Positions 9,738 to 62,341 of a DNA stretch of 64,000 nt are shown piece after piece (the first letter of the stretch is position 1; each line of letters opens with the position of its first letter). The notes below the pieces were generated by a model. It ran no database searches. It saw only the letters and a list, made by a program, of their open reading frames with translations, and had not been told where the DNA came from. Source of the DNA: Methylicorpusculum oleiharenae. GTDB taxonomy: Bacteria > Pseudomonadota > Gammaproteobacteria > Methylococcales > Methylomonadaceae. The position numbers and the translations under genes are program-made. The DNA is taken from assembly GCF_009828925.2 (NCBI RefSeq), contig NZ_WUTY02000001.1, positions 930,001 to 994,000 on the forward strand. The letters run 5' to 3'.

Positions 9738-10745
9738 ATGGCTATGCAGGCTTATGACAAAGAAGAACATCCATTTGCACCGTTTATCCGCATTCTGGGA
9801 AAAGGTAAAAAAGGCACGCGGGCACTGACCCGTGATGAGGCTTATGAAGCCATGCGCATGATCATGGCCGGCGAAGTGCTGCCGTCTCAACTCGGCGCTT
9901 TTTTGATGTTAATGCGGGTTAAAGAAGAAACAAGAGAGGAACTTGCAGGGTTTGTTCATGCAGCACGCGATTCGTTTACTCAGCCTTTAGACGTATCACC
10001 AGCCGACCTGGACTGGTCATCCTACGCAGGTAAACGGCGGCACTTGCCCTGGTTCCTTTTATCCGCATTGCTGCTTGCCGAAAACGGCGTCAGCGTTTTT
10101 ATGCACGGTGCAGGCGGGCATACCAATGGCCGAATTTATACTCAAAACGTATTGGCTTATTTAGGCATTCAAGCGGCTACCTCAATGCAGGAATCGCAAC
10201 AGCAGCTGCTTTCAAACAGATTCAGCTATTTGTCACTGGAACATTTTTGTCCGCAGCTTTTTGAAATCATTGAACTTCGCCGTATTATGGGCTTACGGTC
10301 ACCGGTTCATACCCTGGTCCGCCTGCTCAATCCTTTCAATGCCGCTTACAGTATCCAGGGCATTTTTCATCCAGGCTACCGGCAGGTTCATCAAGAAGCC
10401 GCTTTATTGCTCAATCAGCCGCATGTGTCGGTATTTAAAGGGGAAGGCGGAGAAGTAGAACGAAACCCTGATGGCGATTGTCTTGTTCAAAGCGTCCACG
10501 AAGGCGTTTTGTCAGATGAACTGTGGCCTGCGTTATTTCAACGCCGCCATATGAAACCGGATGATCTTGACCCACAACAATTAGTTTTGCTTTGGCGTGG
10601 AGAGATCAGTGATGAGTATGCCGAAGCAGCGGTAACAGGCACAGCTGCCGTTGCATTAAGGTTGCTGGGCAAAGGGGATAACCAAGAGGACGCTCATGCC
10701 CTGGCGCTTGGTTATTGGAACAACAGAGATAAACAAAGGTTTTAA
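9738..10745 (+). CDS. TrpD-like glycosyltransferase-family protein (YbiB type)
   Basis: This 335-residue protein has the nucleoside-phosphorylase/anthranilate phosphoribosyltransferase fold. An N-terminal helical bundle (LTRDEAYEAMRMIMAGEVLPSQLGAFLMLMRVK) is followed by the alpha/beta domain. The glycine-rich loop is diverged (MHGAGGHTNGR where TrpD has a GTGGD-type motif), as in the YbiB subgroup. YbiB-type proteins bind nucleic acid and no enzyme activity is established for them. So this is not a tryptophan-biosynthesis gene, and no trp genes surround it. It lies 2 nt behind cyoE and is probably co-transcribed. A repeat element has landed directly at its 3' end; one flanking direct-repeat copy contains its stop codon. 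Confidence 0.85.
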   Translation: MAMQAYDKEEHPFAPFIRILGKGKKGTRALTRDEAYEAMRMIMAGEVLPSQLGAFLMLMRVKEETREELAGFVHAARDSFTQPLDVSPADLDWSSYAGKRRHLPWFLLSALLLAENGVSVFMHGAGGHTNGRIYTQNVLAYLGIQAATSMQESQQQLLSNRFSYLSLEHFCPQLFEIIELRRIMGLRSPVHTLVRLLNPFNAAYSIQGIFHPGYRQVHQEAALLLNQPHVSVFKGEGGEVERNPDGDCLVQSVHEGVLSDELWPALFQRRHMKPDDLDPQQLVLLWRGEISDEYAEAAVTGTAAVALRLLGKGDNQEDAHALALGYWNNRDKQRF

Positions 10746-10746
10746 C

Positions 10747-10900
10747 GTAGCTACTCGCCCGCTTGGAATAGCGGGTGTAGGTGATTGATTGAAAAGGCTT
10801 CTGCAACAGGGATGTTGCAGAGAGCTACAGGGAAGTATTAATGCGTCCTTTGAAATCAAGCGCCTACACCCAATAAAACGGGAAAGGGGTGAGCAGATAC
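10747..10900 (+). repeat. MITE-like palindromic element, copy 1 (family A)
   Basis: A 154-bp non-coding element runs from GTAGCTACTCGCCCGC to GGGGTGAGCAGATAC. It is flanked by an exact 8-bp direct repeat, GTTTTAAC, at 10739-10746 and 10901-10908, which looks like a target-site duplication. Inside, GGGTGTAGG pairs with CCTACACCC, and a hairpin CTGCAACA/TGTTGCAG is nested within. Three related copies occur at 21452, 28961 and 62211. No protein is encoded, so movement would depend on a transposase elsewhere. Relative to the arms, the core has the same orientation as in the 62 kb copy. Confidence 0.85.
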
Positions 10901-10907
10901 GTTTTAA

Positions 10908-11537
10908 CTAAACATTACTCGATCTTGGCCGGGCAAATCGAGGAACCCCTTTAACAAAGGTTTTTTCCAAATAAATATACTCCAGCCCCATTAAGGTCTC
11001 GCCATTCTGGTGCTTGACCCACACCACTTTAACTTCACCCAGCATATCCAGGCGTTTAAAATCGAATGCAGCCACAGTTCCCTCATCAACCAGGATGAGC
11101 TGCGGCAAACGAATCATTAAACCGTCTACAGAAACATTTACCGTCATAAAATGGCAGCGCTCACCGTTCAAAATGATAAGCCCAGGCGCTGACAGGCTTT
11201 TACGGTAAACTTGTCTTTCGTAAAACAAATTATCAATGTCATGCTCGATCGTGCGAAACTCCATAGCCAGATACAAATGCCCATCAATGATATCGGATCT
11301 GACAATTTCTACTTCTCCAGCCAATCGCATCTCATGCAGGTAAACATCAGCCAAGGGCTTCATTTTGATCGTCTCGAATAATTCTACGACCTTGTTTTCC
11401 GGCTCTTTGGTGGCAAGTTCAGCCAGCATACCGGTAATAGAGATATTGCTCAGGGTAATCTCATACTCTTCGCCGCCAAGATAAATAAAACCGTGTGAGG
11501 TTAATTTTTTTCGATAAAATCGTTTTTCGTATGACAT
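10908..11537 (-). CDS. tandem PilZ-domain protein
   Basis: This 209-residue soluble protein seems to contain two PilZ-like beta-barrels in tandem. The first begins EKRFYRKKLTSHG and continues to LSNISITGMLAEL. The second begins YERQVYRKSLSAPG and continues to MTVNVSVDGLMIRL. PilZ domains bind cyclic di-GMP through an RxxxR stretch and a D/NxSxxG motif; here the second motif reads NISITG and NVSVDG, so ligand binding is plausible but not certain. The gene stands alone. A GGDEF-domain protein is encoded elsewhere in the window at 40763. The function is inferred as a c-di-GMP effector controlling surface or motility processes. Confidence 0.82.
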   Translation of the reverse strand: MSYEKRFYRKKLTSHGFIYLGGEEYEITLSNISITGMLAELATKEPENKVVELFETIKMKPLADVYLHEMRLAGEVEIVRSDIIDGHLYLAMEFRTIEHDIDNLFYERQVYRKSLSAPGLIILNGERCHFMTVNVSVDGLMIRLPQLILVDEGTVAAFDFKRLDMLGEVKVVWVKHQNGETLMGLEYIYLEKTFVKGVPRFARPRSSNV

Positions 11538-16199: not shown

Positions 16200-16311
16200 G
16201 CCATTCTCACGGAAGCACAGTATTTGCGGACAGGTGAAAGCCTCATGTCATCGTAACTACAACGCTATAAGCTCCAGCGATTCACAGTTTGAGCTTTTAA
16301 TGTTGCTTTGA

Positions 16312-16397
16312 GGAAAGGTGTAAGCCTTGCTAGGAACTCCGTAAACCCATCCATGGGAGCTTGACGGCCCGACATCCCCGCAAAGCTTACACCTTCC
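16312..16397. repeat. inverted-repeat element, family C copy 1
   Basis: Arms GGAAAGGTGTAAGCCTTGC and GCAAAGCTTACACCTTCCC pair at 17 of 19 positions. They enclose about 48 bp containing the palindrome-rich core CCGTAAACCCATCCATGGG...TTGACGG. The same core recurs at 21790-21936 (minus) and 48709-48840 (plus). The rest of the 360-bp gap from 16150 to 16509 shows no gene. Confidence 0.75.
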
Positions 16398-16509
16398 CTT
16401 TTTTATCATCAAACCGGGAATTGCTGCTATAAACTCGAAACTTTTGTAATAACTTTCGACGTGTGCTAATAGGTAGTTACAACCCCCACTGCAAATCCGG
16501 TAAATAGCC

Positions 16510-21451: not shown

Positions 21452-21604
21452 GTATCTGCTCACCTCCTCCAATTTTATTGGGTGTAGGTGGTTGATTGAA
21501 AAGGCTTCTGCAACAGGGATGTTGCAGAGAGCTACAGGGACGTGTTTACGCGTCCTTTGAAATCAAGCACCTACGCCTATAATTCAAAGCGGGCGAGTAG
21601 TTAC
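21452..21604 (-). repeat. MITE-like palindromic element, copy 2 (family A)
   Basis: Read on the minus strand it begins GTAACTACTCGCCCGC and ends GAGGTGAGCAGATAC, like copy 1. Flanks are AATACAGG (21444-21451) and AATACAGA (21605-21612), a 7-of-8 direct repeat. Relative to these arms the core (CTGCAACA...TGTTGCAG and the GGACG/CGTCC hairpin) is in the opposite orientation to copy 1. No coding content. Confidence 0.85.
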
Positions 21605-28960: not shown

Positions 28961-29113
28961 GTAACGTCTCATCCGCTTTCGAATTGAGAGGGCAGGTGCT
29001 TGATTCAAAGGACGTGTCAATACGTCCCTGTGGCTCTCTGCAACAACCTTGTTGCAGAAGCCTTTTAAATCAACCACCCGCACCCAATAAAATGGGAGGG
29101 GGTGAGCAGATAC
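28961..29113 (+). repeat. MITE-like palindromic element, copy 3 (family A)
   Basis: It runs from GTAACGTCTCATCCGC (a worn version of GTAACTACTCGCCCGC) to GGGGTGAGCAGATAC. The core is inverted relative to the arms compared with copy 1, as in copy 2. Flanking bases match only weakly (TACC shared), so any target duplication has decayed. The left end is the most diverged of the four copies. The remainder of the 336-bp gap to 29288 shows no gene. Confidence 0.8.
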
Positions 29114-48708: not shown

Positions 48709-48840
48709 CATACTGAAAAATCGTTCGACTTCATTATAAGGTACGGGGTGTCTGTCGAGGACCGCCGTGAACCCATCCATGGAGGCTTGACGGCAGCATC
48801 AATGCTGCCGACATCCTCGCCAAACACCTCGCGCTTTATA
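48709..48840 (+). repeat. dispersed repeat, family C copy 3
   Basis: The sequence CATACTGAAAAATCG, CTGTCGAGGACCGCCGTGAA, CCATGG, TTGACGGCAGC and CATCCTCGCCAAACAC repeats the order of the copy at 21790-21936 on the other strand. It begins about 30 bp beyond the insertion sequence. Confidence 0.75.
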
Positions 48841-48869
48841 GATACCAGAGGTTTTTTTGATTTGATAGC

Positions 48870-62210: not shown

Positions 62211-62341
62211 TTATCTGCTCACCCCTCCTGTTATATTCGGTAGAGGTGCTTAATTTCAAAGGACACATTAATACGTCCCTGTTGAAGATGCCTTTTCAAT
62301 CAATCACCTACACACTCAATTTCAAGCGGGCGAGTAGTTAC
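62211..62341 (-). repeat. MITE-like palindromic element, copy 4 (family A)
   Basis: On the minus strand it begins GTAACTACTCGCCCGC and ends GGGGTGAGCAGATAA. The core orientation is that of copy 1, but the CTGCAACA/TGTTGCAG hairpin has been lost by a deletion of about 24 bp. AAATACAAAC occurs immediately left (62201-62210) and again at 62347-62356, five bases beyond the right tip, so it looks like a slightly extended target duplication. The rest of the 480-bp gap to 62544 shows no gene. Confidence 0.8.

What the first reader, a model, noticed from the sequence alone, without database searches (positions are those of the whole stretch)
21452..21604. Core of the family A element is inverted relative to its arms in two of four copies
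With every copy turned so that the CTACTCGCCCGC arm is on the left and GAGCAGATAC on the right, copies 1 (10747) and 4 (62211) continue GTAGGTGATTGATTGAAAAGGC. Copies 2 (21452) and 3 (28961) continue AGGTGCTTGATT(T)CAAAGGACG instead, i.e. the reverse complement of the core. The change happens at the inner inverted repeat GTAGGTGxTTGATT. Either the core flips by recombination between these repeats, or two element subtypes arose and spread. A switchable 85-bp segment within a MITE would be unusual.
Basis: seen in the sequence. Interest (0 to 1): 0.8.

Follow-up and report, generated by a model that had tools for sequence, protein, structure and literature searches.

The report
Jumping DNA hairpin with recurrently inverted core
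A short mobile DNA element of methane-eating bacteria, built like a forked hairpin, has had its middle part turned around relative to its ends several separate times during evolution, in one case with no other base changed.

Summary
Copies 1 and 4, and copies 2 and 3, carry the same ~150-bp element with the two-hairpin core in opposite orientation relative to the arms. Copies 1 and 2 differ by 50 edits as they stand and by 19 after inverting the inner ~100 bp.

The element looks like an IS66-type MITE: 8-bp target duplications (83 of 134 copies; 1.1 expected), and a tip, GTAACTACTC, shared with an IS66-family transposon of this genome. It folds into a stem with a two-hairpin fork, supported by covariation.

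In this genus the two orientations are old subfamilies. Orientation follows arm sequence, and 8 orthologous insertion sites keep it, so ongoing switching is not supported here.

Elsewhere in the family the flip recurs: mixed orientations occur in G017, G089, G083, G020 and G033. In G089, copies L408 and L409 differ by one exact inversion and nothing else in 154 bp, with breakpoints inside a 10-bp inner repeat.

Most likely mechanism: rare template switching or strand exchange at the inner repeats; some flipped forms then spread by transposition. The inversion is shown; the enzymology is inferred. New variant of a known kind.

The parts
10747..10900 (+). Copy 1 of the element, class I orientation (A arm left; 8-bp flanking duplication GTTTTAAC at 10739-10746 and 10901-10908)
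   Evidence: duplication read directly
21452..21604 (-). Copy 2, class II orientation; strand given with the A arm at the left (flanks AATACAGG / AATACAGA, 7 of 8 identical)
28961..29113 (+). Copy 3, class II orientation, decayed A arm, no clear flanking duplication
62211..62341 (-). Copy 4, class I orientation, 131 bp, most of the GCAACA..TGTTGC hairpin deleted
21484..21497 (.). Inner repeat of copy 2, B-arm side (GTAGGTGGTTGATT)
   Evidence: read
21561..21574 (.). Inner repeat of copy 2, A-arm side (AATCAAGCACCTAC)
   Evidence: read
21507..21528 (.). Hairpin 2 of the core (TCTGCAACA..TGTTGCAGA)
21538..21555 (.). Hairpin 1 of the core (GGACG..CGTCC)

Best explanation
The element is a non-coding, near-palindromic IS66-type MITE of methanotrophs in the window's family. 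Outer arms carry slightly different terminal inverted repeats, inner repeats lie inside them, and a fork of two different hairpins sits at the top. Because the inner repeats are inverted, a replicating or cruciform strand can switch template within them and copy the fork the other way round, which turns the core relative to the arms with no other change. Such flips are rare and have happened several times in the family. Flipped copies stay mobile, so one flip can found a subfamily: this explains classes I and II in the window's genus, which arose before its three sampled species parted. Shown: the structure, the target duplications, the exact inversion in G089, mixed orientations in five further genomes, and co-inheritance of orientation with the arms in this genus. 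Inferred: mobilisation by an IS66 transposase, and template switching as the mechanism.
For: Exact inversion: L409 with bases 28-126 (to 38-116) inverted equals L408 with 0 differences in 154 bp; the two differ by 18 otherwise. They alone, of 27 G089 copies examined, share an arm variant, and both carry a core variant found in 9 of 27, so this was an inversion within one lineage and not a swap between subfamilies. Recurrence: flipped copies 1 of 27 in G089, 1 of 10 in G083, 1 of 16 in G020, 3 of 10 in G033, 4 of 14 in G017. Over nine genomes inversion shortens the distance in 91 of 92 opposite pairs and 0 of 770 same-orientation pairs. In G017 the four flipped copies need 4 changes on the tree (3 on arms alone, 3 on core alone); one clade is rejected weakly, p-AU 0.041. 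Old split in Methylicorpusculum: both classes in all three genomes, diagnostic arm sites, arms tree compatible with one class I clade, 8 orthologous sites unchanged. MITE. Structure: z -8.8 and -6.7; 14 of 28 pairs with two-sided changes, 0 of 500 shuffles reaching it.
Against: The enzymology is not tested. Free trees on short pieces disagree with a single old flip: 5 changes on arms, 12 on core, 6 on the A arm, 20 on the B arm; one clade is not rejected for the core (p-AU 0.326), but that is no proof. Hybrid copies exist (L143 has a class II A arm and core with a B arm identical to that of class I copy L172), so arms may also be exchanged between copies; three further class II copies with the same B-arm motif may simply keep an ancestral state. 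Flips are weak for two copies: L525 (49 to 37 edits) and L381 (31 to 18). Repeat length does not predict flips simply: G061 and G011 share the 18-bp repeat of G083 and show 0 of 20. G107 (0 of 18) and G127 (0 of 17) show none.
Confidence: 0.75

Rival explanations
1. Only one old inversion happened. Two subfamilies spread from it, were inherited across the family, and no later flip took place.
For: In Methylicorpusculum orientation follows the arms, and 8 orthologous sites are unchanged.
Against: L408/L409 in G089 are identical apart from the inversion, in G017 the sister copies L309 and L313 share arm and core variants but differ in orientation, and each flipped copy matches the arms of its own genome.
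Confidence: 0.08
2. A regulated, reversible switch: a host or element recombinase inverts the core at a fixed locus, as in phase variation.
For: The inversion is exact and recurrent, and inner inverted repeats flank the inverted part.
Against: 0 of 8 orthologous sites differ in orientation; no recombinase was found because none was looked for beyond IS66; no known recombination-site sequence is conserved, since the inner repeats differ between genomes; the element holds no gene or promoter shown to be switched.
Confidence: 0.07
3. Arms are exchanged between different copies by recombination or gene conversion at the inner repeats, in two steps, so that the core ends up reversed.
For: L143 looks like a class II element with a class I B arm; L144 and L152 are mosaics of two element types.
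Against: L408 has both arms, with a private variant, and the core of one parent lineage.
Confidence: 0.2
4. Homologous (RecA) recombination between the two inner repeats inverts the segment.
For: Breakpoints lie in the repeats; the highest flip fractions were seen where perfect repeats reach about 18 bp (G017, G033).
Against: In L408 the breakpoint window is a 10-bp perfect match, short for RecA (recalled); G061 and G011 with 18-bp repeats show no flips among 20 copies.
Confidence: 0.2
5. Assembly artefact: repeats joined wrongly make apparent flips.
For: G089, G020 and G033 are drafts of 80 to 520 contigs.
Against: The G083 genome is one contig and its flipped copy L457 is flanked by an 8-bp duplication; L408 also has matching flanks; both classes in the window's genome lie in one 5.24-Mb contig with 8-bp duplications.
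Confidence: 0.05

Closest known systems
IS66-family MITEs (miniature inverted-repeat transposable elements)
   Same: Short, non-coding, many copies, terminal inverted repeats beginning GTAA, 8-bp target duplication, tip shared with a resident IS66-family element
   Different: Forked two-hairpin core with covariation, and a core that occurs in both orientations; I found no report of such core inversion in the searches listed in Tried and rejected
Loop inversions by replication template switching (Monttinen and Loytynoja 2022, PMC8794818; abstract and passages seen)
   Same: A hairpin's loop is inverted when synthesis switches strand in the stem; the paper lists 69 loop-only inversions in rRNA genes and bacterial examples
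   Different: Those loops are typically four bases; here about 77-100 bp holding two hairpins, in a mobile element, with products that multiplied
Flip and flop of the terminal hairpins of adeno-associated virus (recalled; only a search listing seen)
   Same: Palindromic stem carrying two small hairpins whose order is reversed relative to the stem
   Different: There the two forms are a regular product of hairpin-primed replication; here flips are rare and no such replication is known
Invertible segments of phase variation (recalled)
   Same: Segment between inverted repeats is turned around exactly
   Different: No recombinase, no switched gene, no mixed orientation at one locus seen

Membership tests
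IS66-type MITE | Terminal inverted repeats beginning GTAA (recalled for the family) | tested here: met
   GTAACTACTCGCCC / GTATCTGCTCACCC (one end GTAT); G089 arms and the IS66-family element L301 share GTAACTACTCAGCGTAA
IS66-type MITE | 8-bp target duplication (recalled for the family) | tested here: met
   83 of 134 copies match at 7 or 8 of 8 flanking bases, 1.1 expected; lengths 6, 7, 9 and 10 give 6, 3, 1 and 0
IS66-type MITE | Resident transposase of the IS66 family | tested here: met
   PF03050: 4 matches in the own genome, two with a 484-codon open frame; L301 shows end repeats and an 8-bp duplication by eye
IS66-type MITE | Mobilised in trans by that transposase | not testable with these tools
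   Needs a transposition assay
Phase-variable invertible element | Both orientations occur at one locus in relatives or in a population | tested here: not met
   8 orthologous sites, all concordant; reads not available
Known structured RNA family (Rfam) | Reaches a family's gathering score | tested here: not met
   0 matches in the window; in six loci only sub-threshold hits: Ysr224 21.8-23.1 bits and P11 32.2 bits, each against 70
REP/BIME elements | RAYT transposase partner and REP tetranucleotide | not tested
   No search for a RAYT gene was made

The most novel reading that the evidence does not exclude
Core inversion is a built-in by-product of how these elements move: a single-stranded or hairpin intermediate is copied through its fork and re-resolved at either inner repeat, so that each round of transposition can give flip or flop, as at the ends of hairpin-replicating viruses. 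The conserved two-hairpin fork would then be the part read by the copying machinery, and one fork could be served by different ends (G033 elements have other ends, GTACAyGACAAAA, with the same kind of fork).
Probability: 0.12. Interest if true: 0.8.

Novelty: new variant of a known kind. Interest (0 to 1): 0.55.

Why it matters
It shows inversion of a whole forked structure inside a bacterial mobile element, caught with no other change (L408/L409) and repeated in several genomes of the family. The many copies per genome make it a natural assay of rare strand switching at short inverted repeats, and they show how one mutation can found a new MITE subfamily. It also warns that MITE copies with reversed cores can be one family, which simple consensus building would split or misread.

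Tried and rejected
Rfam: no match in the window at gathering scores; weak hits in loci were not followed. Plasmid and phage collections, distant mode: no match. A candidate orthologous flip, L037/L192 against L179 in G001, was rejected after alignment: the G001 copy sits about 11 bp further along, next to bases that the empty site would have, so I read it as an independent insertion. Other near pairs with opposite core direction (L138 with L104/L106; L032 with L182) were not accepted because the junctions do not coincide on both sides or the flanking duplications differ (L032/L182 was not aligned further).

Outgroup polarity of classes I and II: arms of G034, G017 and Ca. Methylobacter oryzae copies are too diverged to decide; left open. 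A rule linking flip frequency to perfect repeat length was not upheld.

Dropped rows: of 188 core hits 53 were left out of the 135-copy analysis (truncated, ambiguous or outside the three genomes). In G017, 3 of 17 hits (L310, L320, L321) were left out as truncated or degenerate, and only 10 of the 14 entered. In G033, L380 (other type) and L524 (cut by the contig end) were left out. G127: 11 of 17 and G020: 13 of 16 entered; the rest were judged by eye. Only the best 10 of 78, 97 and 126 matches were read in G083, G061 and G011, 16 of 82 in G020, 12 loci of 33 matches in G033, 18 of 20 in G107. In G121 six loci were read; the four of one type share one orientation.

Literature: searches found no description of this element or of MITE core inversion; the library holds open-licence papers only, one search was left unused, and only PMC8794818 was opened (abstract and passages).

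Not used: protein family libraries, structure prediction, viral and metagenome contig scans, the E. coli collection.

Full report
What is there. They lie between open reading frames of 80 codons or more except that copy 3 is crossed by one 82-codon TTG-started frame that looks spurious. Copy 1 starts 1 bp after a stop codon. Copies 1 and 2 have 8-bp flanking duplications (8 of 8 and 7 of 8, read); copy 3 and the shortened copy 4 show no clear one.

How many and where. A pattern for hairpin 2 with up to 3 mismatches finds 70 places in the own genome, 108 in G001 and 32 in G002, against 1, 3 and 1 for the reversed control pattern. From fetched loci I extracted 188 core hits: own genome 26 class I and 43 class II, G001 35 and 56, G002 8 and 17, three from other genomes (fragments and a few hits of a related type included). 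A covariance model built from 29 copies finds the element in 29 of 151 genomes of the family drawn evenly, 12 of 29 genera, at E <= 1e-5.

What kind of element. Of 134 copies with both flanks, 83 have an 8-bp duplication at 7 or 8 of 8 bases; 1.1 expected. The own genome has four IS66 transposase matches. One of them, L301, ends in GTAATTACTCAGCG and GTAACTACTCAGCG with GTTTTTTC on both sides (read), sharing the tip GTAACTACTC with the A arm; elements of G089 share 17 bases, GTAACTACTCAGCGTAA. I take it as an IS66-type MITE; mobilisation is not tested.

Structure. Single strands fold to a long stem with a fork of two hairpins, z -8.80 and -6.73 against shuffles. On 29 diverse copies the inner stem and fork have 95.2% standard pairs and 14 of 28 pairs with changes on both sides, against 6.7 in shuffles, 0 of 500 reaching it; slid controls give 3 to 5. 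The structure was derived from the same alignment and the rows are related, so this is support rather than proof of selection, and part of it may come from the symmetry of the repeats themselves. The outer arms are not in that consensus structure.

The two classes in Methylicorpusculum. In 135 near-complete copies, arm site A29 is T in 81 of 81 class II and A, T, G in 43, 10, 1 of class I; A23 is G in 50 of 54 class I and T in 77 of 81 class II, with no class II copy having G. On the arms, holding class I together gives a better tree than the free search found (log-likelihood 21.8 higher, p-AU 0.81); on the core it is 14.9 lower but not rejected (p-AU 0.33). Free trees need 5, 12, 6 and 20 changes on arms, core, A arm and B arm; these pieces are 37 to 80 bases long and weak. 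Eight insertion sites shared between species, found by flanks meeting at the same junction, all keep class and direction: L006/L122, L011/L070, L016/L135/L068, L018/L108 (and L096 on one side), L034/L191, L035/L190, L037/L192 (right flank displaced by about 220 bases), L213/L195. So in this genus orientation is old and stable.

The flip elsewhere. In G089, 26 of 27 copies have one orientation and L408 the other. L409 with its inner segment inverted anywhere from 28-126 to 38-116 equals L408 exactly; without inversion they differ at 18 of 154 places. The pair alone shares the arm variant GTTTGGAGCTG (2 of 27), and both carry the core variant TGTAAACTCTG (9 of 27). Flipped copies also occur in G083 (L457, 1 of 10; 22 edits as is, 3 after inversion), G020 (L381, 1 of 16; 31 and 18), G033 (L490, L522, L525, 3 of 10; 47 and 11, 44 and 13, 49 and 37) and G017 (L306, L313, L314, L319, 4 of 14; 25 and 12, 27 and 6, 26 and 6, 31 and 13). 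In G017 the four need 4 changes on the combined tree, 3 on arms, 3 on core; branch supports are modest (11 to 83) and one clade is only just rejected, p-AU 0.041. As a control, inversion shortens the distance in 0 of 770 same-orientation pairs over nine genomes and in 91 of 92 opposite pairs. No flips were seen among 18 copies of G107, 17 of G127, 10 each of G061 and G011, 13 of a second G017 subfamily or four of G121.

How it most likely works. Shown: exact inversion with breakpoints inside the inner repeats, without other change. Inferred: that a strand switches template within the hairpin stem during replication or cruciform resolution. A 10-bp window is short for RecA (recalled), and loop inversions by template switching are described for rRNA hairpins, bacterial ones included (PMC8794818, passages). 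Arm exchange between copies also occurs or has occurred (hybrid L143; mosaics L144, L152) and is the main rival for some flips. Whether inversion happens in place or during transposition is open.

Verdict. Observation confirmed. A switchable segment is not supported. Interest is moderate: a new variant of a known kind of element, with a clean natural case for a rare mutation.

Noticed in passing
window 48713-48863 and 16281-16427: Two weaker members of the same fork superfamily (model E 2.1e-06 and 0.0038) with CATCCATGG-type loops and other arms.
   Followed up: partly
window 62211-62341: Copy 4 has lost about 20 bases of hairpin 2, apparently between two CAGGGA repeats.
   Followed up: no
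L131, L206: A second element type with the same two-hairpin core but other ends (TATACCT..TTTCGGCA) sits inside or beside family A copies; L144 and L152 are mosaics of the two.
   Followed up: partly
L483, L486, L490, L495, L499, L503, L522, L523, L525, L526 (G033): Elements with a different end repeat (GTACAyGACAAAA) share the fork and also show both core orientations, so one fork is served by more than one kind of end.
   Followed up: partly
L143 (G001): Class II A arm and core with a B arm identical to that of class I copy L172: a likely hybrid made at the inner repeat.
   Followed up: partly
both hairpins of the core, many genomes (e.g. L307, L325, L381): The two hairpins often carry the same apical motif, CATCCnTG, so the core may have begun as a duplicated hairpin; similar hairpins in other gammaproteobacteria are recalled, not checked.
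   Followed up: no
L065, L131, L206 (Ysr224); L004 1852-1991 (P11): Sub-threshold Rfam matches: Ysr224 to the related core (four places, 21.8-23.1 bits) and P11 beside a copy (32.2 bits), gathering score 70 for both.
   Followed up: no
window 10745-10747: Copy 1 starts 1 bp after the stop codon of the 335-codon frame 9738-10745 and lies between it and a convergent frame; it could act as a terminator hairpin.
   Followed up: no
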